DNA from: Bacilli bacterium
GTDB taxonomy: Bacteria > Bacillota_I > Bacilli_A > ML615J-28 > CAG-313
DNA: 64,000 nt
NCBI GenBank assembly: GCA_017937305.1
Contig: JAGBDV010000001.1
Location: 1 to 64,000, forward strand
Direction of reading: 5' to 3'
Positions 2,783-49,082 of this stretch are shown here, in pieces; positions within the stretch are counted from its first letter, which is position 1, and every line of letters starts with the position of its first letter. Position numbers and translations under genes: made by a program. The notes under the pieces are model-generated. The model made no database searches, was not told the DNA's origin, and saw nothing but the letters and a program-made list of their open reading frames with translations.

Positions 2783-3358
2783 TTAATCATAAATAACATC
2801 ATTTTCATATCCTAATGTACCACCGAAGCAATATGAATTAATAATTTTTTCTATTACATCTTCATATTGTTCATCATATAAGCGAAGTAATAATATATAA
2901 TCTCCTTTTTCTCGATTAATATATGCATTAATTTTCAAAACACTAAAAATCTCTTTTTCATCGGAAAATATATATTTTTCAATAGAATTTGAATAAATTT
3001 TAACTCTATCATAATTTTCATTGACTTTTATAGCGTATTCTACTTCATATTTATTATTAAATGATAAATCATTCCCTATGTAAAGCCAATCATTATTTTT
3101 ATATATAGAACTCACATATCCTTGTACAATTTGTTCTGCTATTACTTCTTTTGTATCTTTATTAATTAATGTTATTATACCATCATCAATAATAAACTCC
3201 CATTCATTAGGTATTTTAATGGTTCCTCTTAAAGTGCTATTTGTTGGGATTTTAGTTGTATAAAATCCTTCATAATTTTCATCATAAAAATTAAACAATC
3301 GACATCCACTTAAAAATAATATAAAGAATAAGAGAATTATTAAATTAATTTTTTTCAT
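2783..3358 (-). CDS. Lipoprotein downstream of RHS-A; candidate immunity protein, 191 aa
   Basis: The N-terminus has a basic start, a hydrophobic core and the lipobox LSGC at about residues 16-19, so it is a predicted lipoprotein on the outer face of the membrane. The mature part is rich in Asp, Asn, Tyr and beta-type sequence; I recognise no domain. It starts 12 bases after the RHS-A stop and has the ribosome site AAGGAAGG. It occupies the slot that a SUKH-3 immunity protein holds in cassette B. That position suggests immunity to the RHS-A tip, and an extracytoplasmic one would fit a toxin acting at the envelope. Function is inferred from position alone. Confidence 0.65.
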   Translation of the reverse strand: MKKINLIILLFFILFLSGCRLFNFYDENYEGFYTTKIPTNSTLRGTIKIPNEWEFIIDDGIITLINKDTKEVIAEQIVQGYVSSIYKNNDWLYIGNDLSFNNKYEVEYAIKVNENYDRVKIYSNSIEKYIFSDEKEIFSVLKINAYINREKGDYILLLRLYDEQYEDVIEKIINSYCFGGTLGYENDVIYD

Positions 3359-6300: not shown

Positions 6301-8131
6301 CTACTTCAATATCATATTGCAAGGCATTCCTTAATAATAAATCATAGTTATTTAAGTTAATTTCTGTTACTCCATCAGTCAATTTTATAATAATATTTGT
6401 AGCATATCTTTTATATCTTCCATTATCAAATGAAACAATATGGTAAGTTGAATCATTTTCAAAATAATCTTTTTTTAATTGTAATAAATCATTAAAACTT
6501 AATCTAGTAGATGACCATATTAATTCATTAATAGTATATGTATTATCATTATCTTGAATAGAACAACTAATCATATCAATATCATTAATATTAATTTCTT
6601 CATTAGTTGTTTTGTTTACAAGTATTACATCACTATGAGTGCCTGCTTTTAATTTTAAATCAGAGATTAATAATGGACAATTATCAGCAGGTAATAATTC
6701 TTCATCATACGAAAATTTAAGTTTTAAATTTTTGAATTGAAGGTCATTTATAGTAATTGACATATTTAATTTTTGCCAAGCGTTCACCGCATCTTTATTT
6801 AAATATCCATAACCACATACACTTTCTTCATCATCACTGTTGATAACTAATACTTTAACTTTATCAGATAATAGTTCTATATTAAGATACACTAAACACG
6901 ATAAATCATAATAATTAACTCCCAAAAAGTTATTTAGTAAGTTACTTTTAAATTCAGCAAAATAATTTTCATTAGTATCTTTAATAGATAGTGTATCAGA
7001 TGTTAATGAATATGCATTTCTATTATTAATGCAAATTGTGCTTGAACCAGTTGGCATTACATCTAATCCAAATTTATTTGTCTCATCTTTAAAATGTGAT
7101 TCATCAACTTGTTCTAAGGCAGTTGTAAATCTTCCTTCACTATCATAAAAATAAACAATAGTTACATTATTACTATTTGTAACATTTGTTTTATGATTTG
7201 TTGGAAGATATGAAATTGTTAATGATTCAATGGTATCTAATTTATTAATATCATCTTCATTAAAAACAAATTGTTTATCACTTAAATACTTATCATCACC
7301 TAATATAAATTCACTACCTAAATATTCATCTACTTCAGCCATAATTGGAATTATTTTGACATTATATGAATCTAAAGAAACCACTTTATTTCCTAAATAA
7401 ACAAAATCAATTTCTTGACACTTATTGTAAGAAATCATTTTAGTAATATTATGTGCTGAATTATATTCATATTTAAATATTTTCTTTTCGCCTTTATAAG
7501 TTGTTTTCTTTACATAAATTAAATTTTCATTTTCATCATAGTAATATTCTAAATTATATTTATTTTTATGATCACCATATATAGAACATGTTTTAATTAA
7601 TCCATCATCATAATATGCAAATTCTATTCTATTTTGGACTTCCCTTGTATCATAATAACTCACTACTTGATTTTTACTATTATATGATATAACTTTTGAA
7701 AAGTTTTTATAATTAATTCTTGTTAATCTCTCATTAACAAATTTTAATTCTACACCATTTTGCATAGTAATTGTTTGAGTTGAAGAATCAAATATAAAGT
7801 TTAATCCACTTGTATCATAATATTTTGTTCCGGTTAATAACTTAAATTCATGTTTCATTCCAACTTCATCAATATAATAATACACATCTTGAATTTTATA
7901 AATATATTGTTCAATATCTAATTTCCACTTATTTCCACATTTACTACTTAATCCACTAGGTAAACTAAAGTGTGAATTATATACATGATTAACTCTTAAA
8001 TTATAACTTTCAATATTAATATTAGCATCTGGAGTTGAAAATAATAATCTACCTGTAAAAGTATTAATACTGCCTTGTCCATTACCTAATTCAAAAGATA
8101 ACTCCTTTTGAAAATTTTTACTATTATCCAT
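3371..8131 (-). CDS. RHS-repeat polymorphic toxin A, about 1586 aa
   Basis: A giant RHS/YD-repeat shell protein. The N-terminus (MDNSKNFQKELSFELGNG) has no signal peptide. A beta-jelly-roll-like insert lies around residues 380-500, followed by dense YD repeats such as YYYDGYGRLTKKEL. The conserved RHS core spans about 1343-1410 (NPIRYKGYYYDEETG ... RYYSPELCRFISPDD ... NPISYADPSGHM). The 176-residue tip beyond it (1411-1586) is the expected toxin. It holds GMLYGDLPVSLANIP and AGNSHAMDGADMGP, but I recognise no family. I choose the second ATG (8131), which matches the cassette B start and has GGATGG at good spacing; the ATG at 8143 lies inside the ligase stop region. The ligase precedes it and a lipoprotein follows. 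Confidence 0.88.
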   Translation of the reverse strand: MDNSKNFQKELSFELGNGQGSINTFTGRLLFSTPDANINIESYNLRVNHVYNSHFSLPSGLSSKCGNKWKLDIEQYIYKIQDVYYYIDEVGMKHEFKLLTGTKYYDTSGLNFIFDSSTQTITMQNGVELKFVNERLTRINYKNFSKVISYNSKNQVVSYYDTREVQNRIEFAYYDDGLIKTCSIYGDHKNKYNLEYYYDENENLIYVKKTTYKGEKKIFKYEYNSAHNITKMISYNKCQEIDFVYLGNKVVSLDSYNVKIIPIMAEVDEYLGSEFILGDDKYLSDKQFVFNEDDINKLDTIESLTISYLPTNHKTNVTNSNNVTIVYFYDSEGRFTTALEQVDESHFKDETNKFGLDVMPTGSSTICINNRNAYSLTSDTLSIKDTNENYFAEFKSNLLNNFLGVNYYDLSCLVYLNIELLSDKVKVLVINSDDEESVCGYGYLNKDAVNAWQKLNMSITINDLQFKNLKLKFSYDEELLPADNCPLLISDLKLKAGTHSDVILVNKTTNEEININDIDMISCSIQDNDNTYTINELIWSSTRLSFNDLLQLKKDYFENDSTYHIVSFDNGRYKRYATNIIIKLTDGVTEINLNNYDLLLRNALQYDIEVVNTIYSFETEIINQENVKYMYIRKTGEKRIYSGDDVTLITNNSYEKYDLLGKIIEEETSKNITICYEYDDYDDLINVYFTDQNSTEPYYTLSYSIYPSQFCITQLNKVINLVYDNDCVLVKELISSKNSSEDDRITDYVYDIFNENIVEVKRTNGNSNFIKYSGSGKVVEFKTSSHADYDDTNNIIYQFDHTPLLLNNKYNRAQSTMIKTFNNQGNLFTNIFNNRKLFKDEVDNEILTILEEENGNNIFTSTYNSKNKLISIKHNNEEVLSCLYDVDTESPDNLNNVISYNIVKDERLNIAEKYQMKNNDNLIQKQMYFPLLNPENEDYTSISDYSNKEYVLTKETEIDKISYKQFAIGYDDVNYRFNNQNVENNFNKTDPENLLEFRQVRSNNVLESQIDKTTIKVLNKAGLIETEYYYDGYGRLTKKELENKYSNNTKKFNVTNSYNTETRRLEKITINPVESGFSVESTFAYDYNDKITSNPIKFRIEGQDYSYDNSYEYDINEQLTKDTSYFGTKEFSYYADGSINNIIHTKKDGTLNNINYLYEKGLLTNIVSNDYNISLGYDNTTRDCVSITKIKDNIIEYQYLLNWNKNRLNSIGDISKTINFEYNLINGLRYRKSVSYGNNNSNNYDIYYYYDDNKLLKEVRKNETLLYLYDKDGLLGFVLVKDGVVNKTFYYIKNYDNSVIGIVDESYNLVGRYVYDAYGNQEIICNSQNVSNVYTNLQIMNLNPIRYKGYYYDEETGWFWLSSRYYSPELCRFISPDDIEYLDPESVNGLNLYCYCANNPISYADPSGHMIVPNPIYKSNVGKLIGLYIRKGFITAYDRCTSFGITGWKRIGYSLLGMLYGDLPVSLANIPLLFSSIKMATDTRFKFQDNPNYSFWNAGLYAYFLKNTYYKDEDSRTILGLYIELQAHYLFYLAGNSHAMDGADMGPTSEDDTAMLSEWIASKIMGAVNDFIDIFKTPLPKITIFK

Positions 8132-8133
8132 AA

Positions 8134-9498
8134 TTAAAACCATCCTTTCTCTGTTAATTCTTCTAATACTTCTTCAACAATTTCACTATCTTTAAAGAAC
8201 TTCATTGATTCTTCACCATCACATAATGTTCTTTTATTACCACGACCGGCAATAAAGATAGCATCTTTTTCATTTGAACAAGTAATTGCTTCTTTGATAG
8301 CTTCTACTCTATCTAAGATAATTTCACTATTAACTGTTTCACCTAAATATGATTTTAAATTAAGACATATTTGTTGGACATCTTCTGCCCCACTATCACA
8401 TTCAGTTAAATATACATAATCAACATCTTTTAATAAGCCCATTGCATATTTTCTATATTTTACTCTTGAGTTAATATACTCTTCTGATTTAAACTTTTCA
8501 TCCCAATGTTTATATCCATATCCAACAGAGCCAACTACTACTTTAATTTGATTAATTAGGCCTTTTTCTTTTAATTCTTTTAAACATTCTAAAGGTTTAT
8601 CAAGTTGTGTATCAATTAATATTAATCTATTATTCATATTAATTACTTCACTTCTTCCACCAACTTTAATATCATAAATTACGTCTTTAAATTTGTCTAC
8701 ATCAAATAAATTTAAAGCTTGTAAAGTAGTGATTGTTGCTAAGATATTAAATGCATTATATTTCATTAATAATTTAGTCTTAAAATTAATTACTTCATCA
8801 CTAACTTTAACTTCCATATTTAATCCATCTAGTGTCAAAAATAATTCTTGTAATACTACATCAAAGAAGTTTTTATTAACTTGATATGTTTTTAAAATAT
8901 GATCTGTTGAAAATAGATATTTATCATTATGTGACGTTAACTTTAATAATTCATTTAATAATTTTTCATTATAACATTGAAAACCAATTACGCATTTTGT
9001 ATCTTTATTTGTGTTTCTAAAAAATGATTTTTTTAATTCAACATATTCTTCTTCAGAATAATTTTCTTCACTATGGAATGGATTTAAGTTTGTTAATACT
9101 TTAACATCAAAATCGATATCATCTAAAATATGTTTTTCTAAAACTGATTCATTAACTTCTAAAATTAAATAGTCAGCTTCATATGCTTCCACTTCTTCAA
9201 TAATATTAAATAAATCTTGTTCTGATCTAAGCGCAATTTCAATGCCGATAGTTTTATCTATATATGTTACAGGTGAATCTACCATTGCACTTGAATATAA
9301 AACTGATTTATATCCCAAACTCTTTAAGTATTCATGTAACATAACACATGTTGATGATTTACCTGTACTTCCTGTAACACCAATTATTTTTAATTCATTA
9401 ATATTTTTATCTTCTTTCTTTTTAAATTCTTTTTTGAATTTTCTTGTTTGCTGTAACTCTTTTTTTAATAATTTTTCTTTTACTTTTTGAAGTTTCAT
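8134..9498 (-). CDS. MurE-like Mur ligase family protein A, 454 aa
   Basis: An ATP-dependent ligase of the Mur fold. After a very basic leader of about 35 residues come the P-loop GVTGSTGKSS (about 40-49), LILEVNES, a Mur-type segment NLNPFHSEENYSEEEYVELK with the His and Lys equivalents, YNAFNILATI, then C-terminal GRSEVINM, LIDTQ, VVVGSVGYGYKHW and IFIAGRGNKRT. The order and spacing match MurE, but the amino-acid-recognition DNPR of MurE is replaced by ECDSGAED, so the added residue is probably different. This is unlikely to be the housekeeping enzyme: it lies in a toxin operon and is duplicated in cassette B. The ribosome site is AAGGAG. Substrate unknown; wall-precursor modification is inferred. 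Confidence 0.85.
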   Translation of the reverse strand: MKLQKVKEKLLKKELQQTRKFKKEFKKKEDKNINELKIIGVTGSTGKSSTCVMLHEYLKSLGYKSVLYSSAMVDSPVTYIDKTIGIEIALRSEQDLFNIIEEVEAYEADYLILEVNESVLEKHILDDIDFDVKVLTNLNPFHSEENYSEEEYVELKKSFFRNTNKDTKCVIGFQCYNEKLLNELLKLTSHNDKYLFSTDHILKTYQVNKNFFDVVLQELFLTLDGLNMEVKVSDEVINFKTKLLMKYNAFNILATITTLQALNLFDVDKFKDVIYDIKVGGRSEVINMNNRLILIDTQLDKPLECLKELKEKGLINQIKVVVGSVGYGYKHWDEKFKSEEYINSRVKYRKYAMGLLKDVDYVYLTECDSGAEDVQQICLNLKSYLGETVNSEIILDRVEAIKEAITCSNEKDAIFIAGRGNKRTLCDGEESMKFFKDSEIVEEVLEELTEKGWF

Positions 9499-9513
9499 AA
9501 CTTTCTCCTTTTA

Positions 9514-10017
9514 CTAATCTTCTGGTGAAATTGATGCATATGTATAATTAACATGACAATCAATAACTCCTATAATTACATTTGTTTCATTTGAAGTTAA
9601 TGTAACTTTAAATGGAATTTTTTCTGTTCCTTGTAATGTTCCTCCTGAGCTTTTAACTGTACCTGTGATAGTTACTGTTTCTGTTACATCATCATAAGAA
9701 CCATTTAACGTAATATTATTTGATAAATCATATTCTACTGTGATATCTACTTTTTCTAAACATTCAATAGTAATTGTGTTTGTTGGTACTACATTTGGAG
9801 ATAAATCCATATATTTTTTTGCAACCTTATAGCCTTTTCTAATAAACTCTAAAGTATATTTATCAATTGATGAGCCTGACTCATAAACTTGTCCTTCATC
9901 TCTTGTGATATAACAATACATTTTTGAAATATCACCTTTTTCATCTCTCACAACACTATCTACTTCAAATGATTTTCTATGCAGATATTGTGCATTTCTG
10001 TTTTTAATATTTTTCAT
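9514..10017 (-). CDS. Phage tail-fibre-like small protein A2, 167 aa
   Basis: The N-terminal part (about 1-60) follows a pattern seen in prophage tail-fibre or baseplate proteins: a start like NRNAQYLHRKSF, an acidic GDISKMYCYITRDEG, and ESGSSIDKYTLEFIRKGY where phage proteins have GTP-x-NAxNLN. The C-terminal part (about 75-167) is beta-rich (ITIECLEKVDITVEYDL, VTITGTVKS, IPFKVTLTSNETNVIIG) and looks like one Ig-type sandwich. It ends with ISPED, similar to the end of the cassette B homologue. No signal peptide. It lies between its paralogue A1 and the Mur ligase, so it may be an adaptor or particle-like component. Function is inferred. Confidence 0.6.
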   Translation of the reverse strand: MKNIKNRNAQYLHRKSFEVDSVVRDEKGDISKMYCYITRDEGQVYESGSSIDKYTLEFIRKGYKVAKKYMDLSPNVVPTNTITIECLEKVDITVEYDLSNNITLNGSYDDVTETVTITGTVKSSGGTLQGTEKIPFKVTLTSNETNVIIGVIDCHVNYTYASISPED

Positions 10018-10048
10018 ATTATTTTCTCCTTTAATTTTGAATTATTAA

Positions 10049-10534
10049 TTAATCATAATCAAACTCAACTGTACATTTTACATATCCGATTTTTACATTA
10101 GTTTCTTCAGAAGTCAAAGTAACATAAAAATCAAAATTTGTAATTCCAGTTCCGGTAACATTATTTTTAACTGTTGCAGTAACCGTAACTATACCAGTAG
10201 TATTATTGACAGAACAACTCAAATTAAATGGGAACGAACTACTATTTCCTACTGTTGCATTAACTTCTTCCAAACATTCGATTGTTAATGTATTCGTAGT
10301 TAACAAATTCTTTCTTAATTCCATTAAAGATCTCGGTACCCTATATCCTTTTCTAATAAACTTTAATGTATCTTTATTTATAGGCGTTCCTTCTTGATCT
10401 ACATCACCATCTGCTCTTCCAATAAACCCATAAAACTTTGTGATATCTCCAGCATTATTTCTTTCTAATACTTCTTCAACAACTATTAGTTTTCTATTTA
10501 CATATTCTGCTTTTCTATTTTCAATATGTTTCAT
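10049..10534 (-). CDS. Phage tail-fibre-like small protein A1, 161 aa
   Basis: A paralogue of the next gene: the same N-terminal pattern (ENRKAEYVNRKLIVVEEV, GDITKFYGFIGRADG, QEGTPINKDTLKFIRKGYR) and the same beta-rich C-terminal half (TNTLTIECLEEVNATV, GIVTVTATVKN, FDFYVTLTSEETNVKIG). The GTPIN element resembles the GTPLNA motif of Firmicutes phage tail proteins. It starts 2 bases after the holin stop, so the genes are probably co-translated. Cassette B has a single member at this place, so A1/A2 look like a local duplication. Its role in the toxin locus is not known. Confidence 0.6.
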   Translation of the reverse strand: MKHIENRKAEYVNRKLIVVEEVLERNNAGDITKFYGFIGRADGDVDQEGTPINKDTLKFIRKGYRVPRSLMELRKNLLTTNTLTIECLEEVNATVGNSSSFPFNLSCSVNNTTGIVTVTATVKNNVTGTGITNFDFYVTLTSEETNVKIGYVKCTVEFDYD

Positions 10535-10536
10535 TT

Positions 10537-10827
10537 TTAACTGTCTCCTTCTTTATTTTTAATAAATATTTGCTTTATTATTTGGTTAGTTCCAGTAGAA
10601 CTAACTCCACTTACCATACCAATTCCTAATGCAGTCCAAGCATTAGATACATTTAATAATATTTCAGGATTTGTTAGGAATATTAATATCCCTAACAAAC
10701 CACCAAAACATGCTAGTATTATTGGTATTAATTTGTATAAGTCTTGTTTATTTTTAAATAAGACTTTATAAATTTCACCTATTATGTAACATATGATTAC
10801 TATAATAGGAATACTAGTAAACTCCAT
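10537..10827 (-). CDS. Phage holin, hol44 / holin_5_2 type, A copy, 96 aa
   Basis: A small membrane protein with three hydrophobic stretches: IPIIVIICYIIGEIY (about 6-20), LIPIILACFGGLLGILIFL (about 33-51) and ALGIGMVSGVSSTGTNQ (about 66-82). The last, ending in a glycine-rich STG-NQ motif, is typical of the Hol44 superfamily V holins of Gram-positive phages. The C-terminus is charged (IFIKNKEGDS), as in holins. Holins form membrane lesions that release endolysin, and some non-phage loci use them to export large toxins. No endolysin gene is visible in either cassette. An upstream GGAGG supports the start. Family call is good; role in toxin release is inferred. Confidence 0.85.
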   Translation of the reverse strand: MEFTSIPIIVIICYIIGEIYKVLFKNKQDLYKLIPIILACFGGLLGILIFLTNPEILLNVSNAWTALGIGMVSGVSSTGTNQIIKQIFIKNKEGDS

Positions 10828-10875
10828 TTAATCTTCCTCCTGAATTTAAATAGATTTTATTATTACTTGATATCA

Positions 10876-11160
10876 TTATAAATCATCTACTCGTTTTGTT
10901 AAATTAGCTACAGCTTCTTCAACTTTTGCAAGTCTTTCTAAAATATTGCGATATCTTTCATCAACTTTGGTCAAATTCTTTTCCACCCTATCTACACATG
11001 CTTTTATATAGCCAATATCAGATATTACAATCCCATCGTTTTTACTTTCTTGTTGTTTATCATTCAATGAATTTCTTTTAAAAGCAAAATAAGCGAATGT
11101 AATGCTTGATATTGTTCCAATAATACTAACAATTGAAACAACTATTGTTAATGAATCCAT
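10876..11160 (-). CDS. TM plus coiled-coil protein of phage lysis-module type, A copy, 94 aa
   Basis: One N-terminal TM segment (about 4-27, TIVVSIVSIIGTISSITFAY) is followed by a basic/polar linker and a long heptad-patterned region (about 50-94, with VDRVEKNLTKVDERYRNILE and LAKVEEAVANLTKRVDDL). Such proteins commonly sit next to holins in Firmicutes prophages. By my alignment it differs from its cassette B copy at seven of 94 residues, far more conserved than the toxin. That suggests it interacts with another conserved membrane component, probably the holin. The exact function is unknown. Confidence 0.75.
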   Translation of the reverse strand: MDSLTIVVSIVSIIGTISSITFAYFAFKRNSLNDKQQESKNDGIVISDIGYIKACVDRVEKNLTKVDERYRNILERLAKVEEAVANLTKRVDDL

Positions 11161-13287: not shown

Positions 13288-13497
13288 CTAATATTTCTTT
13301 TTGTATTTAGAAAGTTTGGAAATAATTTTTGGTCCTACGCCTTGTTCTTTTTCTCTACATCTTCTATATGAACTATTATTTATGTAAAGTTCATTAAAAA
13401 TTGCTTCTTTCCCTTTTTCATAGAATTTAATATATGTATCAAAAAAGTGAAAATATATCATAGAACCTTTATAATCAGTAAAAGATATTTTATTCAT
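13288..13497 (-). pseudogene. Truncated third copy of the cassette regulator (HTH part only), 69 aa
   Basis: The start has the ribosome site GGAGG. The protein aligns with the N-terminus of both regulators: FTDYKGSMIYFHFFDTYIKF against KDFKQYFNLLDVLIK, NELYINNSSYRRCREKEQG against ESINISPSSYRRVKKEGN, then GPKIISKLSKY against GESILKQLSQYF. It ends right after the HTH and lacks the helical-repeat domain of about 300 residues. It could be a decayed remnant of a third cassette or a functional HTH-only competitor. The intact start and ribosome site leave the second option open. Confidence 0.6.
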
Positions 13498-13907: not shown

Positions 13908-14750
13908 CTAATCAGAAACTAATAAAATATTAAACTGTTTATATTCACCACCCCATAATTTTACAGCAATTAAATTGTCATACCAGGATAATATTTCACT
14001 TTTATATTTATTTTCAAATAATTCTTTATTAATAACATCATTAGTTAGAAAGTAATTATAATTCGTTATAATCATTAAATATGATTCCTTATTTATATAT
14101 TCAGTTAATTTTCTCATATTTAAAATATGCATTTGAAAATCAAAAGATACTTTATCAAATGGAATTAATTTATTTAATTCTAAAATAAAATTTTTTAAAT
14201 TACTACATTTTTTTCCATCTAACTCAATTACAAAAGAGTGATTAAATTTTTCTTTATACTTATTAATTTCATCTTTATTTATTTTATATATTTCGTTTTT
14301 AAAAGTACATGGCTTAGCTTTAATTGGAATTTCTTCAACCTTATTGCCATAATAGCAATTTTCTATCATTTCATAAATATTATTTCCAAACAAGAATAAA
14401 TAACCATCAAATGAAGCATATATTTTTCCTGACAAAGAAATCATAATTAAATAGTAAAAACCAATTTCTCCTATAGGTATTAACTGTTCTCCTACAGATT
14501 CCTCATAATCTAATGCTACTTCTTTATCTTCTGCTATCATTTTCTCACAATCAAAAATTACCTTATCTCTTGATTTTTTTAAAGGGAATTTAAAAGTAAA
14601 CTTATCAAATCTTTCTAAAAACAGAATTAAATTTTCATTAACTTCATATCCGTTTTGTTTTATATATTTAATTATTCGATCAATATCTCTTTTTTCATTA
14701 TTCCAACCATTTTTTTTTAAGCATTGTAGTACGTCTTTAGAAAAACACAT
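13908..14750 (-). CDS. SUKH-3-type immunity protein with barstar-like C-terminal half, 280 aa
   Basis: The N-terminal half (about 1-130) matches the SUKH-3 pattern: LKKNGWNNEKRDIDRIIKYI, NGYEVNENLILFLERF, then PIGEIGFYYLIMISLSGKIY, and FGNNIYEMIENCYYG. SUKH proteins are common immunity partners of nuclease and deaminase toxins. The C-terminal half (about 170-280) starts HSFVIELDGKKCSNLKNFIL, continues MRKLTEYI and IITNYNYFL, and ends WYDNLIAVKLWGGEYKQFNI. That pattern is barstar-like, which I hold with less confidence. No signal peptide, so it acts in the cytoplasm. It begins 9 bases after the RHS-B stop, the usual place of a cognate immunity gene. A two-domain protein could neutralise two toxin activities. 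Confidence 0.75.
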   Translation of the reverse strand: MCFSKDVLQCLKKNGWNNEKRDIDRIIKYIKQNGYEVNENLILFLERFDKFTFKFPLKKSRDKVIFDCEKMIAEDKEVALDYEESVGEQLIPIGEIGFYYLIMISLSGKIYASFDGYLFLFGNNIYEMIENCYYGNKVEEIPIKAKPCTFKNEIYKINKDEINKYKEKFNHSFVIELDGKKCSNLKNFILELNKLIPFDKVSFDFQMHILNMRKLTEYINKESYLMIITNYNYFLTNDVINKELFENKYKSEILSWYDNLIAVKLWGGEYKQFNILLVSD

Positions 14751-14759: not shown

Positions 14760-17700
14760 CTATCCACTGACAACTAATAAAATACCTCGAAGAAGTTTTC
14801 TACAATTTCTACACATAGGCGCCATGGCCAAATCCTTAACCCTTACAGTTGTTACTACTAAATCACTAAGTCTAGCCCCATCATCTAAAGCTTTTGAAAC
14901 TGCCCTCACTTCTGCACAATTAAAAATATCATCCCATTCTTCTAAAGATGGAAACTCTCTTGCTTTTAAAAGTTTATTTGGAATAAAATCAGGATTTCTT
15001 CCTGCTTTTCCACGATAAATTTTTCCAGTTTTTTTGTCAATGGCTGTAGATACATTGTTATATTTTCTTTTTGAAGTAGCAAACACATCTTTAGCATACT
15101 GAAGTGCTGACTGTTGTGAAGCATTTACTATTTTAATAGCACTGGAAATATTAAGACTAGTACTTATGATCGCAAACAATCCAGTAATAGCCAAAGAGAA
15201 CGACCAATTATTATTTATGTAATTTAAAAAACCGGGACCAAAACCTTTTTTTGAACAAAAGCCAGCTATTGCAGCTGCTCCAAAAAACCACAAACCTGAA
15301 ATTACTACACTTTTTACTAAAGCTTTAGCCAAGATAGCAGCAGCACCAATATTAAAGAATGCAACAACAATAATTATTATTACAGCAATTACCATTAACC
15401 CTATTGATATAGCTTTTCCGAGCGGACTATTCCAAAATTTTTGCCAAGTCACTTGCCAAAAATATTGCCACTTTGTTAATTCATCAGAATCATAAGTAAG
15501 CTTTTCAAATGTTTCATAAGTATATGTATTATACACTAAATTAATAGGATTTGCAACAGTTAAACTATACAAATTAAGACTATACAAAGAATTGGCATTT
15601 GAAAATGCAACTTCTGGTGATACCGCTGAAATAAATTGTTTCATTAACGGAGAATAATATCTACCATTAATAAAATATAATTTACTTTCAGTATCATAAT
15701 ATAGTGATTTCCATCTTATTGGATTGATATTCCCAATATGATTTTCATCTGTAATAATGGTTCCACCTTTCTTATCATATACCATACAGTTTCCCCATGA
15801 ATCATATTCATAATAAGCTACTTCTTTATCTTTATTATATATTGCAATTACATTATCTTCAGCATCTTTAACAAATGTATATTGAAATTCATCATTATTA
15901 TATAATGGTATAATTCCACTCAATCCGTCTGCATCATATAAATATCTAATCATTAGACCATTTCTTTCTTCCCTAATTAACTTTGATCCATCATATACAT
16001 AATCTACATTATTGTCATTAATAGTCTTTTTAAAACGCACTCCTTCACCATTATAATAATATTTAATATTTTTATCACAAATGTATTGTTTTAATAAGTT
16101 ACCTCTTTCCCAAAACATATTTTGAGGTTTAGTTTTTGAATCAATATTATAATGCGTACAATTTCCAAAATTATCATAATCAAATAAGTTTTCAATAAAT
16201 TTCTCTTTTCGTTTTGTTAATCTTCCTTTATCATATGTATAATATGTAGATTCACCAGCCATAGATTCACAATATAAACTTCCATCTTTATTATATGAAT
16301 ATGTCTTATCTGCATATATAAAAGATGAATTTGTACTACTTTCAAAAATTAACCTATTTGCATTATCATATTTATATGTATTTAAAGTTTCTTCACTATC
16401 ATTACCTCTTTCTGAGGTAATTTTTTTATTAGAAATATTTCCTTTTTTGTCATAGGCATAATTTATTTGATATGTTTGGGTTTTTGACATTGGATTAGTA
16501 ATTTTCTTTGTAATTTGTTCTACTTGAAATGTTCCTTTTTTATAAGTAATTTCTTCTGTTACTTTTGAATTTGCTCCAAATAGTCCATCCTTAATTACAT
16601 CCTCTTTGTATCTTAGTCTGCCTAATTTATCAAATTCATAGGATGTTTTTATAGGTAATATCTCAACTTTATCATTAACTACTTCCGTAATAGTTTCTTT
16701 AATTCGTGGATTCATTAGTTTACTTTCATCCTTAGTGTTTTCGCACTTATAGTATACTCCTCCATATTGTACTTGGTTTGTTGAATTTAATTTAGTAGAA
16801 AAATAACTCTCACCATCTTCATTAAAAACCTCATACTCCGTTAAGTCATTAAACTCATTATAATGATATTTATAAGTTCTATTTTCATATGGATCATATT
16901 TTTCTTCAATTTTACTAGCACCATTACTTTCCCATAGTTCTTGTCTTCTATATGTTATTTCTTTATCCCCATTAATAACTGAAGTTATTCTCCCATATTT
17001 ATCAAAATGTATAGTTGATGTGTCAATTTCACTAGAATTATACAAATCTCTATAATAAGAAGTTGTTAATTTATTTTCTACATAATTCATATTTCTTGAT
17101 AATAACAATTGTTTGTTAGGTTTTTTTAACTCATCTCTATACATTAAATAATAATTCGTTGTTTCACCCAATAAATTGTAATTGAACAAAAAACCATACA
17201 TATTACTTTTGTTCCATCCAATAGGCGTCACTGCCAACAATCTACCATTCTTATCATATTTCAAATAATTAGATCCATCTAAATTATTTGAAATTTTTTT
17301 AATTTGCGAAGAAGTATTGTATTTCATTTCAACGGACAAACTTTTTTCTTCATCATTATTATAATGTATATTAGATACATTACCTGAATGCTCATCAGTT
17401 GTTGTAACAACTTTACCTCTATAACTTTCTTCTGAACTTTCTGTTTCTTTAATGGAATACTTTGTTGAAATCACTTCATCAGTATCTTTATGACCCATTG
17501 TTTTCTCTATTAAATTACCTTTTTCATCATAATAATAGCATACTTCAACACCATATTCATCTATCTCCTTTAAAAGATTTCCATTAATATCATAATAGTT
17601 ATATATTGAACTCATTTCATGATTGTTTTTGTCGGATTTCAAACCTTTATTTATCTCTGTAATTTGTAAAATACAATCAGTATTTTTTCCATTCATATTT

Positions 17701-19598
17701 ATATTTTTTAAAAAATGTGGTATTCCATAAGTATATAAATTATTATCAGGACTCTTTACCTCTGAAAAATATAAGGCCCTAGTATTATCTCCATATTCAT
17801 CACTTCCAAACATTACTGGAAACTCTATATTATTAGAATAAAACTTTACACTATTAACCAATATTTTTTTTGTCCCATCACAACACGATAAAATGTAAGG
17901 TAAATCACTGCCATTTAAGCCTCTTGTTTTGAATAAACTATAATAAGTAGATTGAATATCTTTTTCACTAAAATATAAATTCGAATTAACGTATTCAGTG
18001 ATTTCATCTGAATCACTGGTTGTTTTATATTTTATTTTAGTTATTTTATCCACATATCCCCAATTTTCTCCATTTGTTAAACAATATTTTGATACCCCAC
18101 TATGATACAATTTCATATCACCAATTTTTACAATTTTGTTACTATTATTTTCACCGAACATTATTTTAATATCATTTAAATTTTGATACTTTATACAAAT
18201 TGGTATAGCAACATGTTGCCAGCTATTTATTGCAGAAGTATCAACATTAAAAGAGAAAATTTCTTCTTGAGTTTGTGCATTTTCTGATGAATTAATTTCA
18301 ATATTAACTTTTGAATTTGATACATTTTGTTGTATATTTAACCAAAAGTCACACATGAAATTTATATAATTAGAACATTTATATTTTCTATAACTCTTCA
18401 AGTTTTCAAAATAGTCTTTCATTAAATTTTCTTTACTAATTATATAATCCATATTTAAAATATGAACATTTCTAGTATTTATTTTTTCTACATTATCTGA
18501 TGTTGAAATCATAGTTTCTTGTCCATATTTTTCTGTTGTTTTCAAATCATTAATGTCACCATTATTAATTTCAAATTCAGAGACTGTATATCCTTTTTCA
18601 TTAAAAAAGTATATAAATTTTAGATTTTTTTCATTTTCCACAATTGTATTATTATCATCATAAATTAAATTGTTATATGAAATTAAATCTTCTCCATAAA
18701 TTGTTGGATTTTTAATAATAAAGTTCTCATCTGATATATACTTTCCTCCAATATATTTATCCTCGTCTACATAACTATTAATATTTAAGTAATAGTTATT
18801 TTTTTCTTTTTTAATGTTCTCCAAAGTAACAAAGCCTTGCTTTATAGATTCAATTTGATCATTAATATTATAATCAAATAAGAATGTAGACTTGTCCTTT
18901 AATGACACAACATTAGTTAAATGATTTTTTGTATAAATAAACATATGTTTTTCAATATCATTAGACACTTTTATTAAATCATTGTTTTCATTATATTCAT
19001 AGTGTATCTTTTTTATTATATTGATACCATTTTTATATTTTATATAATTTAATAAATTAGTTTCATTATCATATTCAAATAGTAATTTCATATTAGGATA
19101 ATTTGTATCATAAATATTTTTTAATCTTCCAAAAGAATCATAATCAAATTTTTTTGTTTCATTATTATTTGAAACACTTTTAATTATTTTGTTGTTTTCA
19201 AATATCAATCTATTATTTTGTTGATCTTTAATTGTTAATAAATTATTATTCACCTCTAATATTAATTCTAATCCTTCTGAATCATAAAATTTATTATTCG
19301 ATAATTGTTCAAATATATGTTTATATCCCATCGAGTCTATGTATACATATTTCCCATTTTCAAAAATTATATATTGTTGAACATTTAATTTAAAATTATT
19401 ACCTACATAAGTGTTAACATGCTGCGATAAATCAAACATGGAATTATATATATGACTTACATCAATATTAAATAAATTATTACCAATACCTACATCATAA
19501 TATTCATATAATAATCTCCCAGTTGAAAGATTTATTTTTGCAAACCCCGCTCCTGAACTATATGATAATTCACTTTGATTAATTCTACTATTATCCAT
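14760..19598 (-). CDS. RHS-repeat toxin B with YwqJ-like deaminase tip, 1612 aa
   Basis: The N-terminus (MDNSRINQSELSYSSGAG) has no signal peptide. YD repeats run through the shell (for example YYYDEKGNLIEKTMG). A degenerate RHS core lies at about 1292-1356 (NPIRWKSLYYDTESK, GRYYSPLMKQFIS). The 256-residue tip begins with three hydrophobic segments (about 1397-1426, 1431-1447, 1466-1482), as in some toxins that must cross a target membrane. The last part has YRGKAGRNPDFIPN, the zinc-deaminase motif CAE (Cys1561, Glu1563) and APMCRNC (Cys1596, Cys1599), matching YwqJ-like nucleic-acid deaminases. AGGGTGG precedes the ATG; the ligase stop is 4 bases upstream. The SUKH-3 gene follows. The family call rests on motif and context. 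Confidence 0.9.
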   Translation of the reverse strand: MDNSRINQSELSYSSGAGFAKINLSTGRLLYEYYDVGIGNNLFNIDVSHIYNSMFDLSQHVNTYVGNNFKLNVQQYIIFENGKYVYIDSMGYKHIFEQLSNNKFYDSEGLELILEVNNNLLTIKDQQNNRLIFENNKIIKSVSNNNETKKFDYDSFGRLKNIYDTNYPNMKLLFEYDNETNLLNYIKYKNGINIIKKIHYEYNENNDLIKVSNDIEKHMFIYTKNHLTNVVSLKDKSTFLFDYNINDQIESIKQGFVTLENIKKEKNNYYLNINSYVDEDKYIGGKYISDENFIIKNPTIYGEDLISYNNLIYDDNNTIVENEKNLKFIYFFNEKGYTVSEFEINNGDINDLKTTEKYGQETMISTSDNVEKINTRNVHILNMDYIISKENLMKDYFENLKSYRKYKCSNYINFMCDFWLNIQQNVSNSKVNIEINSSENAQTQEEIFSFNVDTSAINSWQHVAIPICIKYQNLNDIKIMFGENNSNKIVKIGDMKLYHSGVSKYCLTNGENWGYVDKITKIKYKTTSDSDEITEYVNSNLYFSEKDIQSTYYSLFKTRGLNGSDLPYILSCCDGTKKILVNSVKFYSNNIEFPVMFGSDEYGDNTRALYFSEVKSPDNNLYTYGIPHFLKNINMNGKNTDCILQITEINKGLKSDKNNHEMSSIYNYYDINGNLLKEIDEYGVEVCYYYDEKGNLIEKTMGHKDTDEVISTKYSIKETESSEESYRGKVVTTTDEHSGNVSNIHYNNDEEKSLSVEMKYNTSSQIKKISNNLDGSNYLKYDKNGRLLAVTPIGWNKSNMYGFLFNYNLLGETTNYYLMYRDELKKPNKQLLLSRNMNYVENKLTTSYYRDLYNSSEIDTSTIHFDKYGRITSVINGDKEITYRRQELWESNGASKIEEKYDPYENRTYKYHYNEFNDLTEYEVFNEDGESYFSTKLNSTNQVQYGGVYYKCENTKDESKLMNPRIKETITEVVNDKVEILPIKTSYEFDKLGRLRYKEDVIKDGLFGANSKVTEEITYKKGTFQVEQITKKITNPMSKTQTYQINYAYDKKGNISNKKITSERGNDSEETLNTYKYDNANRLIFESSTNSSFIYADKTYSYNKDGSLYCESMAGESTYYTYDKGRLTKRKEKFIENLFDYDNFGNCTHYNIDSKTKPQNMFWERGNLLKQYICDKNIKYYYNGEGVRFKKTINDNNVDYVYDGSKLIREERNGLMIRYLYDADGLSGIIPLYNNDEFQYTFVKDAEDNVIAIYNKDKEVAYYEYDSWGNCMVYDKKGGTIITDENHIGNINPIRWKSLYYDTESKLYFINGRYYSPLMKQFISAVSPEVAFSNANSLYSLNLYSLTVANPINLVYNTYTYETFEKLTYDSDELTKWQYFWQVTWQKFWNSPLGKAISIGLMVIAVIIIIVVAFFNIGAAAILAKALVKSVVISGLWFFGAAAIAGFCSKKGFGPGFLNYINNNWSFSLAITGLFAIISTSLNISSAIKIVNASQQSALQYAKDVFATSKRKYNNVSTAIDKKTGKIYRGKAGRNPDFIPNKLLKAREFPSLEEWDDIFNCAEVRAVSKALDDGARLSDLVVTTVRVKDLAMAPMCRNCRKLLRGILLVVSG

Positions 19599-19602: not shown

Positions 19603-20952
19603 TTACCACCCTAGTTCTTTAACTACTTTTTCAACTACTTCACTATCTTTTACTAATTTAAATGTTGTTTCACTATTGCATAATACTTTTCTATTACCTC
19701 GTCCACTTATAAATACTGCATCACCTTCTTCTGAATCTAAAATTGCTTGTTTAATTGCTTCTTCTCGATCCAAAATAATTGATGATGGAATAAGTCCTTC
19801 TAAATTTGCTTCTAATTCTTTACAAATGTCATTTGTATTTTCTTTACCACTATCACTTTCTGTCAAATAAACATAATCTGCAACACCAGGCAATAAACTC
19901 ATAGCAAATTTTCTGACATCTTTTCTTTGTAAAGCAAATTCTTTTGTTTTAAATCTATCCTCCCAATGTTTATAACCATAGCCCATTGAACCTACAACTA
20001 CTTTAACTTTATTAACTTTTCCTTGTCCTTTTAGGTGTTTCAAGCAATCTAGCATAGCTGGCAAATGAGAATCAATAATAATTAATCTTCCATTTACTCT
20101 ATATACTTCTGATCTTCCAGGTATTACTAATTGATTTAATGCTTGTTCAAATTTTCTCACATTTAAAACATCCATAACATCTAATGCTGTTAATGCAACT
20201 AAAATATTTAATGCATTATGTGACATCATTAGTGTTGTTTCCATTTTATAAGTATCATCATTTAAATTGAATCTTAATTTCATTCCTGAAATATCATTAT
20301 CTAATCCTGTTAACAAACATTTTACTTTGTCTTTTTCTAAACCTTTTAGTGTAGCAATATAATTACTTGAACATACAAATTTTGGATAACTATTCAATTG
20401 TAGCAATTCATCTAATAACTCTTTGCTATAGTCTTGAAAGCCAAAAACGCATTTACAATCATCAGCAATATCTTTGAAAAATGATTTTTTTAATTCCACA
20501 TACTCTTCTTCTGGATATTGTTCAAGATTATGTTTCGGATTCAAATTTGTTAACACACGAACATCAAAAGGTACATCCCTTAGAAAACCTTTTTCTAATG
20601 AACTTTCATTAACTTCTAAAACTAAATAATCTGCACCATATGCTTCAACTTCTTCAATAATACTAATTAATGATTCTTCATCTCTAACAGCAACTTCATA
20701 AGCTTCATTTTTCTTTAAATGACTTGCAGGAGAATCAACCATAACACTTGAATATAATGTTGATTTATAACCTAAAAATTTCAAATAATTATGAATCATT
20801 AATGCTGTAGTTGATTTTCCTCGACTTCCTGTAATACCTATAATTTTTAAATTATTTCTTTTAGAATTAATATTATTTTTGTATTCTTTTTTTGTACCTC
20901 TTTTTTTTATTTGCTTTTTTTCTAATTTTTCTTTCACTTTAAAAAGTTTCAT
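19603..20952 (-). CDS. MurE-like Mur ligase family protein B, 449 aa
   Basis: A homologue of the cassette A ligase over its whole length. A basic leader of about 33 residues is followed by the P-loop GITGSRGKST (about 39-48), LVLEVNES, NLNPKHNLEQYPEEEYVELK, HNALNILVALTAL, GRSEVYRVNGRLIIIDS, VVVGSMGYGYKHWEDRF, TESDSGKE, ILDREEAIKQAI and VFISGRGNRKV. These correspond in order to the ATPase, central and C-terminal domains of MurE, but with DSG in place of the DNPR amino-acid motif. All residues expected for ATP binding are present, so it is probably active. It could add an unusual residue to a wall precursor or to another acceptor. It is preceded by the tail-fibre-like gene and followed by RHS-B. 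Confidence 0.85.
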   Translation of the reverse strand: MKLFKVKEKLEKKQIKKRGTKKEYKNNINSKRNNLKIIGITGSRGKSTTALMIHNYLKFLGYKSTLYSSVMVDSPASHLKKNEAYEVAVRDEESLISIIEEVEAYGADYLVLEVNESSLEKGFLRDVPFDVRVLTNLNPKHNLEQYPEEEYVELKKSFFKDIADDCKCVFGFQDYSKELLDELLQLNSYPKFVCSSNYIATLKGLEKDKVKCLLTGLDNDISGMKLRFNLNDDTYKMETTLMMSHNALNILVALTALDVMDVLNVRKFEQALNQLVIPGRSEVYRVNGRLIIIDSHLPAMLDCLKHLKGQGKVNKVKVVVGSMGYGYKHWEDRFKTKEFALQRKDVRKFAMSLLPGVADYVYLTESDSGKENTNDICKELEANLEGLIPSSIILDREEAIKQAILDSEEGDAVFISGRGNRKVLCNSETTFKLVKDSEVVEKVVKELGW

Positions 20953-20973: not shown

Positions 20974-21534
20974 CTAATCTTCTGGTGTTGTAGATGGCAC
21001 TTGGAAAGTAACTGTGCATGTTACTTTCTTAATTAACTCATCTGTTTCCTGTGAATATAATTTCACTACAAAATCAAATTCTGTAGCTCCTGATGATTCT
21101 GGATCTTGACATGCTGTAATATCAATAGTTATTGTTCCTGCTGATACACTATTTGGAGCAGAAACAGTAAAATACTCTTGATAATCATTTTCAATAACAA
21201 TTCTAACTGCTTCTGACACATCAATATAAATGCTATCATACATTGCGCATGATCCATCAAATAAAACTGTAGCTTCAGCATTTTCTAATACTGCCATACC
21301 ATTTTCATGGTAATTTTCTAATGCTATTTTCACGGCAGATTCGATCATTTCTTTAACTGTTGCATTTAAATTTGAGGCTTTCAAAGGAGTACCATTTTCA
21401 TATATAGTTCCTTCATTTCTTGCTTCATCAACAATTAGTTCATAAATTTCACCATTTTCATCATACGTAATATCTTTAATTGTTAATTTTTTTCTATTAG
21501 GATATTGAACTTCCCTATCCACAAATTTACTCAT
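20974..21534 (-). CDS. Phage tail-fibre-like small protein B, 186 aa
   Basis: The N-terminus is the clearest phage-type sequence in either cassette: EVQYPNRKKLTIKDI, ENGEIYELIVDEARNEG and YENGTPLKASNLNATVKEM, matching the tail-fibre pattern R-EG...GTPLNA-NLN. A helical stretch (about 60-80) links it to a beta-rich C-terminal domain (about 85-186: VRIVIENDYQEYFTVSAPN, GTITIDITACQD, TEFDFVVKLYSQET) ending STTPED. It stands between the holin and the Mur ligase. It is longer than A1 and A2 because of an extra helical and linker part. It may anchor the toxin to an assembly or to the cell surface; this is inferred. Confidence 0.65.
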   Translation of the reverse strand: MSKFVDREVQYPNRKKLTIKDITYDENGEIYELIVDEARNEGTIYENGTPLKASNLNATVKEMIESAVKIALENYHENGMAVLENAEATVLFDGSCAMYDSIYIDVSEAVRIVIENDYQEYFTVSAPNSVSAGTITIDITACQDPESSGATEFDFVVKLYSQETDELIKKVTCTVTFQVPSTTPED

Positions 21535-21538: not shown

Positions 21539-21820
21539 TTATTCTCCTTCTTTTTTAAATAATTGTTTTATAATTTGATTTGCTCCAGTTGAACTGGATC
21601 CACTTACAATACCAATTAGTAGCGCACTCCATATATTTGACGTATTTAACATCATTTCTGGATTTGTTAGGAATATTAATATTCCTAACAAACCTCCGAA
21701 ACTTGCTAAAACTACTGGTATTAATCTGTAAAAGTTTTGTTTATTTTTAAATAAAACTTTATAAATTTCTCCAACTATGTAACATAATATTACTATTATT
21801 GGAATACTTGTAAATTCCAT
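21539..21820 (-). CDS. Phage holin, hol44 / holin_5_2 type, B copy, 93 aa
   Basis: Closely similar to the cassette A holin: MEFTSIPIIVILCYIVGEIY, LIPVVLASFGGLLGILIFL and a final GIVSGSSSTGANQIIKQ. Three hydrophobic stretches and a charged tail. I start at the ATG at 21820 because it matches the A copy and GGAGG lies 9 bases upstream; a longer frame from a TTG at 21847 has no counterpart in A. It is separated from the tail-fibre-like gene by 4 bases. Conservation against a changing toxin suggests that it serves a cargo-independent step such as release. Confidence 0.85.
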   Translation of the reverse strand: MEFTSIPIIVILCYIVGEIYKVLFKNKQNFYRLIPVVLASFGGLLGILIFLTNPEMMLNTSNIWSALLIGIVSGSSSTGANQIIKQLFKKEGE

Positions 21821-21867: not shown

Positions 21868-22152
21868 TTAAAACTCATCAACTCTTTTTGTTAGATTAGC
21901 AACAGACTCCTCAACTTTTGCTAATCTTTCTAAAATATTTCGATACCTTTCATCTACTTTATTTAAATTTTTTTCTACTCTATCTACACACGCTTTGATA
22001 TAACCAATATCTGATATTACAATCCCATCGTTTTTACTTTCTTGTTGCTTATCATTTAAAGCATTTCTTTTAAAAGCAAAATATGCAAATGTAATACTTG
22101 ATATAGTTCCTATAATACTAATTATAGAAACTATAATTGTTAATGAATCCAT
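21868..22152 (-). CDS. TM plus coiled-coil protein of phage lysis-module type, B copy, 94 aa
   Basis: One N-terminal TM segment (TIIVSIISIIGTISSITFAY) is followed by SDIGYIKACVDRVEKNLNKV and a heptad-patterned C-terminus (LAKVEESVANLTKRVDEF). The length equals that of the A copy and only seven residues differ by my count. The C-terminal coil faces the cytoplasm if the first residues lie outside. Its fixed position next to the holin in both cassettes suggests joint function. No known activity can be assigned. Confidence 0.75.
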   Translation of the reverse strand: MDSLTIIVSIISIIGTISSITFAYFAFKRNALNDKQQESKNDGIVISDIGYIKACVDRVEKNLNKVDERYRNILERLAKVEESVANLTKRVDEF

Positions 22153-22167: not shown

Positions 22168-22434
22168 TTAAAGATTAATTTCTTTTGCGTGTTTTGATGA
22201 TGTTGTAGATAAACGAAGATAATATTCAGGATTTTCATCTTCAATGACTTCTTTTTTTAGTAATACTACATTATCACTTTCTTCTTTAACACTTTCATTA
22301 TTTGTTTGTTCTACTTCAATAACTACTTGATCACATACCTCATTAACTTCTTCTTTTTTAGTTGAAGTTAATCCAAATAATACAATTACAAAAATTAATG
22401 CAATTGCAACTAACACTACTTTAATTTTCCTCAT
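22168..22434 (-). CDS. Small membrane-anchored protein at the head of operon B, 88 aa
   Basis: Begins MRKIKVVLVAIALIFVIVLFG, a single TM segment or signal anchor, followed by an acidic region with CDQVVIEVEQ and ENPEYYLRLS. The CDQVV and NPEY elements are shared with the cassette A protein, while the C-termini differ. The ribosome site AAAGGAAGG lies just after the 18-bp palindrome. It is the first gene of the operon. Function unknown. Confidence 0.65.
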   Translation of the reverse strand: MRKIKVVLVAIALIFVIVLFGLTSTKKEEVNEVCDQVVIEVEQTNNESVKEESDNVVLLKKEVIEDENPEYYLRLSTTSSKHAKEINL

Positions 22435-22480: not shown

Positions 22481-22528
22481 TAACTATAGTTATGCCTAGA
22501 TTTTACAACAATAAATAAACAATGTCAA
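22481..22528 (-). promoter_or_regulatory. Operon B promoter with operator-like palindrome
   Basis: TTGACA (22523-22528), a 17-base spacer and TAAAAT (22500-22505), with TAACTATAGTTA (22481-22492) at the predicted start point. The geometry is the same as in cassette A. Confidence 0.7.
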
Positions 22529-22571: not shown

Positions 22572-22608
22572 AAAAAAAAAAAAAAAACAGCCAGTTTTCT
22601 GACTGTTT
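22572..22608 (-). terminator. Intrinsic terminator after regulator B
   Basis: AAACAG (22585-22590) and CAG pair with CTG and CTGTTT (22599-22608) around a TTTT loop; on the minus strand a run of about 15 T follows. Same place and form as in cassette A. Confidence 0.85.
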
Positions 22609-23745: not shown

Positions 23746-23771
23746 AATCACACCCCATATATTTCTATAAT

Positions 23772-43696: not shown

Positions 43697-43731
43697 AATT
43701 TTCCCTTTCATTTTCGTTTCTTGATTATTTC

Positions 43732-48097: not shown

Positions 48098-48111
48098 ATC
48101 TATCACCTTTA

Positions 48112-48987: not shown

Positions 48988-49020
48988 GGTGCACCTCACA
49001 TTACTTTGTAATCTATTTAT

Positions 49021-49049
49021 ATTATATCAAAATATTAATTTTATTGCAA
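49021..49049 (-). promoter_or_regulatory. Promoter of the second LRR lipoprotein pair
   Basis: TTGCAA (49044-49049) and TATAAT (49021-49026) with a 17-base spacer. It begins in the T-run of the preceding terminator, so the second pair has its own transcript. Confidence 0.75.
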
Positions 49050-49082
49050 AAAAATAAAAAATCCACTTAATTAAGTGGATTT
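49049..49082 (-). terminator. Terminator of the first LRR lipoprotein transcript
   Basis: A perfect 24-base palindrome (core TCCACTTAATTAAGTGGA) at 49059-49082 with a T-rich minus-strand tail. The rpmE terminator at 51923-51955 has the same core. Confidence 0.8.

What the first reader, a model, noticed from the sequence alone, without database searches (positions are those of the whole stretch)
14763..15530. RHS-B tip: YwqJ-like deaminase preceded by three hydrophobic segments
The CAE and PMCRNC motifs give a complete zinc-deaminase signature at the extreme C-terminus. Hydrophobic stretches directly before it suggest a membrane-crossing pretoxin part.
Basis: partly seen in the sequence, partly recalled or inferred. 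Interest (0 to 1): 0.65.

Follow-up and report, generated by a model that had tools for sequence, protein, structure and literature searches.

The report
RHS toxin with YwqJ-like deaminase tip
An uncultured Bacilli genome carries a giant shell-forming (RHS) toxin whose last hundred residues look like a zinc deaminase paired with a matching immunity gene; the tip is of a known sort, but its operon also carries an unexplained cell-wall-type ligase and a phage holin.

Summary
Confirmed: RHS-B (14760..19598, minus strand, 1612 aa) ends in CAE (residues 1561-1563) and PMCRNC (1594-1599), after two clear and one marginal hydrophobic segments. No shuffled tip has the motif pair (0 of 20,000). The tip is a divergent YwqJ-like deaminase: PF14431 scores 14.4 bits, below its 25.9 cut-off, but relatives in Tenacibaculum and E. 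coli are, like RHS-B, followed by SUKH-3 genes, and Zhang 2012 lists SUKH as immunity to YwqJ deaminases. The hydrophobic stretch is not part of the toxin: the same module sits in other RHS proteins with other tips. RHS-B lacks the second DPxG aspartate used for tip release elsewhere. Nucleic-acid editing is untested; B. subtilis YwqJ stops growth without effect on chromosome or rRNA, so the substrate is open. Beyond the finding: a truncated MurE-like ligase directly precedes RHS-B; RHS sequence lies downstream of 24 of 25 such ligases that can be judged, a phage holin upstream of 13 of 26. I found no paper on this linkage. Tip: new member of a known kind; operon: new variant.

The parts
14760..19598 (-). 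RHS-B, 1612-aa RHS/YD-repeat carrier with C-terminal toxin tip
   Evidence: PF05593 41.4 bits (cut-off 22); TIGR03696 35 bits over its cut-off (28.9, under it); no N-terminal hydrophobic segment
15525..15662 (-). end of RHS core (residues 1313-1358) with degenerate release motif: ...NPINLVYNTYT where RHS-A has ...NPISYADPSGH
   Evidence: sequence; catalytic Asp of second DPLGL motif per PMC8636562 passages
15354..15410 (-). hydrophobic segment 1 (residues 1397-1415)
   Evidence: Kyte-Doolittle 3.26, 0 of 500 shuffles reach it
15255..15311 (-). hydrophobic segment 2 (residues 1430-1448)
   Evidence: Kyte-Doolittle 1.87
15147..15203 (-). hydrophobic segment 3, marginal (residues 1466-1484)
   Evidence: Kyte-Doolittle 1.58
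14763..15077 (-). YwqJ-like deaminase domain (residues 1508-1612)
   Evidence: PF00383 E 0.0054, PF14431 E 0.045; alignment with Tenacibaculum and E. coli tips
14910..14918 (-). CAE motif (residues 1561-1563): zinc Cys and catalytic Glu (roles recalled)
14802..14819 (-). PMCRNC motif (residues 1594-1599): zinc Cys pair (role recalled)
13908..14750 (-). two-domain immunity protein: N half SUKH-3; C half (about 13911-14318) weakly barstar-like in its relatives
   Evidence: PF14433 E 1.1e-14; PF01337 E 0.0036 and 0.021 in L010 and L009 homologs, none in the window copy itself
19603..20952 (-). MurE-like ligase without the N-terminal (UDP-substrate) domain
   Evidence: PF08245 70.5 bits, PF02875 42.5 bits; alignment
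20974..21534 (-). small phage tail-like protein, no family match
   Evidence: no curated match; same position in relatives; 'tail-like' is my label, from a recalled resemblance
21542..21817 (-). phage holin, family Hol44
   Evidence: PF16079 50.4 bits (cut-off 29.2); phrog_1129 holin E 6.6e-16
21868..22152 (-). small phage-type membrane/coiled-coil protein
   Evidence: phrog_1863 E 1.7e-14; XhlA only weak, E 0.039
22168..22434 (-). small protein at the head of the operon
   Evidence: ORF
22500..22528 (-). promoter-like site TTGACA-17-TAAAAT before the operon
   Evidence: 11 of 12 matches; the promoter scan as a whole is near chance (113 found, 97 expected)
22585..22608 (-). terminator-like hairpin between the regulator gene and the operon
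   Evidence: 10 pairs then T run
3371..11160 (-). second cassette of the same plan: RHS-A (3371-8143), Mur ligase (8134-9498), two tail-like genes, holin (10540-10827), phrog_1863 gene (10876-11160)

Best explanation
RHS-B is an RHS polymorphic antibacterial toxin. The YD-repeat shell (shown by sequence) would enclose the C-terminal domain; a carrier-owned hydrophobic module of about 100 residues would help the tip cross the membrane of the target cell (inferred); the last ~105 residues are a zinc deaminase of the YwqJ-like sort (motifs and relatives shown, fold and activity inferred) that would inactivate an essential substrate, probably a nucleotide-type small molecule or a specific RNA rather than bulk DNA or rRNA (inferred from B. 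subtilis YwqJ). The gene directly after it makes a SUKH-3 immunity protein that protects the producer (pairing shown, neutralisation inferred).
For: Complete CAE + PMCRNC signature, absent from 20,000 shuffles. Weak but concordant deaminase models: PF00383 E 0.0054, PF14431 E 0.045; the ortholog gives 0.0036 and 0.031 and the E. coli relative reaches PF14431 E 3.5e-4. Of three plasmid-collection relatives I opened two (Tenacibaculum L058, E. coli L059), and both are directly followed by SUKH-3 genes, as is the orphan copy L010. SUKH is a listed immunity partner of YwqJ deaminases (PMC3482391 passages). Selection holds the pair: between window and L014, dN/dS 0.27 for the deaminase stretch and 0.06 for SUKH-3. 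Module boundary in composition: G+C 0.344 in the deaminase, 0.237 in the RHS shell. The hydrophobic module recurs with other tips in L041, L012 and L121.
Against: PF14431 stays under its cut-off, and 0 of 395 class genomes, own genome included, reach E 0.001. AlphaFold models of depth 1 and 2 are poor (pLDDT 57 and 55): Foldseek gives nothing; the second look lists cytidine deaminases as 6 of its 9 rows but at Z 2.6-2.9 only, and the second model gives no deaminase. The orphan relative L010 has lost the zinc Cys of CAE (SDE instead). Tip release cannot use the usual aspartate. No toxicity data.
Confidence: 0.72

Rival explanations
1. The hydrophobic module itself is the weapon (a pore or membrane-disrupting tip), and the deaminase is a second or decayed domain.
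For: Segment 1 is extreme (Kyte-Doolittle 3.26, 0 of 500 shuffles). Several RHS tips of this group (L044, L055, L056, L057) end in hydrophobic glycine-rich stretches with no evident enzyme.
Against: The same module is followed by different C-terminal domains in L041, L012 (Hint-type domain, recalled label, then other tips) and L121, which fits a carrier part; the deaminase motifs are complete and under purifying selection.
Confidence: 0.12
2. The tip is a nucleic-acid editing deaminase like DddA (C-to-U in DNA or RNA). This is a rival on the substrate only, within the best explanation.
For: Interbacterial deaminase toxins that edit DNA exist (PMC7901873, search listing and start of abstract only).
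Against: No sequence feature found here points to nucleic acid; B. [quoted passage not shown] That test would miss point edits.
Confidence: 0.3
3. RHS-B is a decayed or silent gene whose tip no longer acts.
For: The release aspartate is gone; an orphan tip in L010 lost its zinc Cys, the tip in L009 is broken into short frames, and the E. coli copy is a short remnant downstream of a transposase-like frame.
Against: RHS-B is open over 1612 codons, conserved at 95.7% with dN/dS 0.14 in L014, with complete motifs and intact partner genes in both.
Confidence: 0.08
4. RHS-B leaves the cell through a type VIIb secretion system, as proposed for the Listeria RHS toxin LrhA.
For: LrhA is a 1656-residue RHS toxin beside essC8 (PMC10327511 passages).
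Against: EssC (TIGR03928) passes its cut-off in 1 of 15 genomes of the family, not in the window's own genome; the own genome is only 72% complete. The RHS-B operon holds a holin and a Mur-type ligase instead.
Confidence: 0.08

Closest known systems
B. subtilis YwqJ (LXG toxin) and the YwqJ-like deaminase family PF14431
   Same: CxE and Cys-pair deaminase signature at the C-terminus of a polymorphic toxin with a neighbouring immunity gene
   Different: RHS carrier instead of LXG; SUKH-3 partner; PF14431 score below cut-off; no type VIIb locus found
RHS polymorphic toxins with aspartate autocleavage (Photorhabdus Rhs1, Tc toxin TcC subunits)
   Same: YD-repeat shell, conserved core, variable tip
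   Different: second DPxG aspartate missing, hydrophobic module between core and tip; no PAAR, VgrG or TcA part seen in the genes scanned
Listeria LrhA/LrhI (type VIIb RHS toxin)
   Same: Gram-positive RHS toxin of 1600-odd residues with a downstream immunity gene
   Different: LrhA lies in an ess locus; RHS-B lies after a holin and a Mur-type ligase
Type 10 secretion and TcdE-type holin release of large toxins
   Same: holin gene beside a giant toxin gene
   Different: no endolysin or spanin recognised in the operon; the Mur-type ligase has no counterpart there that I know of; function of the holin here untested
MurE (UDP-MurNAc-tripeptide synthetase)
   Same: Mur ligase middle and C-terminal domains, P-loop GSxGKST, candidate carbamoylated Lys in YxxxKxxFF (role recalled)
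   Different: no N-terminal domain; C-terminal motif GRGN-x4-C; linked to RHS genes rather than the cell-wall cluster

Membership tests
YwqJ-like deaminase (PF14431) | profile score over the curated cut-off (25.9 bits) | tested here: not met
   14.4 bits for the last 136 aa; no match at E 0.001 in own genome. So it is called YwqJ-like, not a PF14431 member
deaminase superfamily (zinc-dependent) | (H/C)xE and PCxxC-type zinc and catalytic motifs in order | tested here: met
   CAE 1561-1563, PMCRNC 1594-1599; the second motif reads PxCxxC here and in the L010, L058 and L059 relatives
deaminase superfamily (zinc-dependent) | alpha/beta deaminase fold | tested here: inconclusive
   models of pLDDT 57 and 55; cytidine deaminases top one second look at Z 2.9, rmsd 4.2, 71 aligned, none listed in the other
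deaminase superfamily (zinc-dependent) | deamination of a nucleotide or nucleic acid | not testable with these tools
   needs biochemistry
RHS polymorphic toxin | YD repeats and RHS-associated core | tested here: met
   PF05593 41.4 bits; TIGR03696 35 bits over cut-off, 28.9
RHS polymorphic toxin | variable C-terminal tip after a shared carrier, with a downstream immunity gene | tested here: met
   different tips after the same module in L041, L012, L121; SUKH-3 gene downstream
RHS toxin with aspartyl autocleavage | two DPxG motifs with catalytic Asp in the second | tested here: not met
   RHS-B reads NPINLVYNTYT where RHS-A reads NPISYADPSGH; role of the Asp from PMC8636562 passages
SUKH-3 immunity protein (PF14433) | profile score over cut-off (23 bits) | tested here: met
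   55.2 bits over residues 3-131
Barstar (PF01337), C half of the immunity protein | profile score over cut-off (23.4 bits) | tested here: not met
   best 17.7 bits in the L010 homolog, nothing in the window copy
MurE / UDP-MurNAc-peptide ligase | N-terminal UDP-substrate domain | tested here: not met
   the linked ligases start near the P-loop; the canonical MurE-like ligase of the same genome has about 60 more residues before it
Mur ligase superfamily | middle and C-terminal ligase domains with P-loop | tested here: met
   PF08245 70.5 bits, PF02875 42.5 bits; invariant columns
type VIIb secretion substrate | EssC in the same genome | tested here: inconclusive
   none over cut-off in own genome, 1 of 15 in the family; own genome 72% complete
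holin-dependent toxin release (type 10-like) | holin plus cell-wall hydrolase in the toxin locus | tested here: inconclusive
   holin PF16079 50.4 bits; no hydrolase recognised in the operon; an amidase gene lies elsewhere at 41747-43711

The most novel reading that the evidence does not exclude
RHS-B is the cargo of an undescribed export or arming cassette of some Bacilli: a holin, a small phage-type protein, and a truncated MurE-like ligase with its own signature (GRGN-x4-C) that acts on the RHS toxin or on the wall at its exit site. The ligase would attach amino acids to a non-UDP substrate (the tail-like protein, the RHS protein, or wall peptide), letting a signal-less giant toxin be anchored or released without type VI or VII secretion, with tips set free by another route than the usual aspartate.
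Probability: 0.3. Interest if true: 0.8.

Novelty: new variant of a known kind. Interest (0 to 1): 0.45.

Why it matters
As a deaminase tip it adds a divergent member to a toxin group whose substrate is still unknown, with a small, ready-made toxin-immunity pair for testing it. The larger point is how Gram-positive cells without an obvious secretion system export RHS giants: the near-constant link of a truncated Mur ligase to such genes, often with a holin, gives that open question concrete genes to test.

Tried and rejected
Family models: PF14431 across 395 class genomes gave 0 matches. The five-row profile A1 over 392 phylum genomes gave 64 with a match at E 0.01; besides the window and its ortholog I read two of them: L062 has a YwqJ-like look (PF14431 E 0.16 only), L063 holds an ordinary-looking 134-aa cytidine deaminase; the rest were not read. 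Viral contigs: A1, the Mur ligase alone and the immunity protein alone found no relative; the Mur alignment A2 found two distant ones. Phages: no match to the tip. Plasmids: no match to the Mur ligase. Solved structures by sequence: nothing significant. The two structure models are too poor to carry a claim; the second look at the second model lists no deaminase, which is no evidence either way.

Considered and rejected: chance motif; that the hydrophobic stretch belongs to the deaminase. Type VIIb export is weakened, not excluded.

Full report
THE OBSERVATION. The stretch 14763..15530 is the last 256 residues (1357-1612) of RHS-B, an ORF of 1612 aa at 14760..19598 on the minus strand. CAE lies at 1561-1563 and PMCRNC at 1594-1599. 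A search for the motif pair in 286 ORFs from 26 loci found it in RHS-B and its ortholog only, and in 0 of 20,000 shuffles of the 196-aa tip. Hydrophobic segments: 1397-1415 at 3.26, 1430-1448 at 1.87 and 1466-1484 at 1.58; the strongest is not reached in 500 shuffles.

WHAT THE TIP IS. Pfam gives two weak, concordant matches to the last 136 aa: PF00383 at 17.0 bits (E 0.0054) and PF14431 at 14.4 bits (E 0.045), both under cut-off. tblastn in plasmid records found three relatives, one in Tenacibaculum and two in E. coli. The two I opened are each followed directly by an annotated SUKH-3 gene, confirmed by PF14433; the E. coli tip matches PF14431 at E 3.5e-4. The E. coli copy is a remnant of 66 codons next to a transposase-like frame; a 640-base query of it with its SUKH-3 gene matches 146 of 5,426 E. 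coli genomes. An orphan tip with a SUKH-3 gene (L010) reads SDE where CAE stands, so has lost a zinc Cys. The same pairing in three phyla is the best evidence that tip and SUKH-3 are toxin and immunity. Zhang 2012 lists YwqJ among the deaminase families paired with SUKH (PMC3482391, passages).

FOLD. Two AlphaFold runs of depth 1 and 2 gave pLDDT 57 and 55. Foldseek found nothing. I count this as inconclusive.

SUBSTRATE. Nothing here names it. The type toxin YwqJ strongly inhibits growth of B. subtilis with no effect on chromosome or rRNA, and the authors suggest small molecules (PMC8321402, passages).

THE HYDROPHOBIC MODULE. Of 24 RHS-type proteins, 18 were complete with a recognisable core end (four were cut, two had no match to the motif used). 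17 of these 18 have at least one segment at 1.6 or more after the core (RHS-A has none), but only 5 of 18 stand beyond nearly all shuffles of their own composition (5 or fewer of 500). RHS-B and L121 are the extremes. A stretch of about 170 aligned residues, core end included, is shared at 33-44% identity by RHS-B and each of L041, L012 and L121, which then continue into different C-terminal domains. It is therefore a carrier part. That it moves the tip through a membrane is inference.

RELEASE. In Photorhabdus Rhs1 the aspartate of the second DPLGL motif cuts off the tip (PMC8636562, passages). RHS-A of the same window reads NPISYADPSGH at that place, RHS-B NPINLVYNTYT; L121, L041, L012 and L046 also lack it. 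Release there must differ or be absent.

THE OPERON. Upstream of RHS-B in one direction lie a small gene (22168-22434), a phrog_1863 gene, a holin (PF16079 50.4 bits), a small tail-like gene, and a MurE-like ligase whose stop is 4 bases from the RHS start. A terminator-like hairpin at 22608-22585 and a promoter-like TTGACA-17-TAAAAT at 22528-22500 precede them; the promoter scan as a whole is close to chance. A second cassette of the same plan ends with RHS-A (3371-11160).

IS THE LINK REAL? Mur-ligase relatives were chosen by ligase similarity alone: 23 in 15 of 43 genomes of the order, and one each in three further genomes among 395 of the class. Of these 26 loci, 25 have sequence downstream, and 24 of the 25 have an RHS profile match there, 23 in the next large ORF and one (L053) after a break; L123 is cut and unassigned, L047 ends at the ligase. 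A holin profile match lies upstream in 13 of 26, the phrog_1863 type in 9, the tail-like type in 18. The RHS profile was iterated within the same ORF set, so drift is possible, but the core motif is visible in the proteins printed. The reverse is weaker: by my own count of the rows, 19 of 34 RHS matches in frames of 1000 aa or more in the order's 43 genomes follow such a ligase; own-genome contig C8 has an RHS giant with a holin but no ligase. The class sample shows the ligase in 18 of 395 genomes, the phylum sample in 7 of 392: a restricted trait.

THE LIGASE. The linked ligases keep the P-loop, a conserved LExxE and YxxxKxxFF in most, and an invariant GRGN-x4-C near the end; they lack the N-terminal domain of MurE. 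They are separate from the genome's own cell-wall-type ligases on C15 and C5:97301. A substrate other than UDP-MurNAc-peptide is likely (inference).

RECENT EXCHANGE. Against L014, synonymous divergence is 1.2 in the holin gene, 0.33 in the tail-like gene, 0.40 in the ligase, but 0.14 in RHS-B and 0.12 in SUKH-3: the toxin-immunity block seems to have moved between lineages more recently than the genes before it.

LITERATURE. No held paper has Mur ligase + Rhs + polymorphic toxin, or Mur ligase + holin + toxin; the one with Rhs + Mur ligase is about MurD dynamics (listing only). The terms holin, Mur ligase and murE do not occur in the held text of Zhang 2012. Only open-licence papers were searchable, so this is not proof of absence.

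VERDICT. Tip: a new, divergent member of a known kind. With its operon and missing release aspartate: a new variant worth following.

Noticed in passing
27613-30832: Adjacent OLD-family ATPase/TOPRIM gene and UvrD helicase gene match GajA (E 6.8e-60) and GajB (E 5.4e-66): a Gabija anti-phage system.
   Followed up: partly
3371-8143 and 2783-3358: RHS-A tip has no family match, and the gene after it codes for a 191-aa protein with a lipoprotein-like start: an unassigned toxin-immunity pair.
   Followed up: no
22633-23751, 11645-12757, 13288-13497: Two paralogous 370-aa regulator-like genes precede the two cassettes (no Pfam match for the one scanned), and a short relative of such a regulator follows SUKH-3; the ortholog L014 has a full-length one there.
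   Followed up: partly
52406-63679: 3757-aa ORF with no Pfam or PADLOC match at E 0.001.
   Followed up: no
46901-51154: Cluster of BspA-type leucine-rich repeat genes.
   Followed up: no
L119:7307-11754: Stretch of a 237-kb viral contig with Mur-ligase-like open frames, broken under both codes tried, next to tail-fibre-like repeats; a possible phage source of the truncated ligase. The window ligase also matches phage family phrog_16655 at E 2.6e-9.
   Followed up: partly
L041 and L046 tips; L012: RHS tips with a Hint/intein-like domain (recalled label) between carrier and toxin.
   Followed up: no
L059:2965-3629: E. coli remnant of a deaminase tip with SUKH-3; the query matches 146 of 5,426 genomes: a widespread orphan immunity locus.
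   Followed up: partly
1279-2463: IS110-family transposase gene beside the RHS-A cassette.
   Followed up: no
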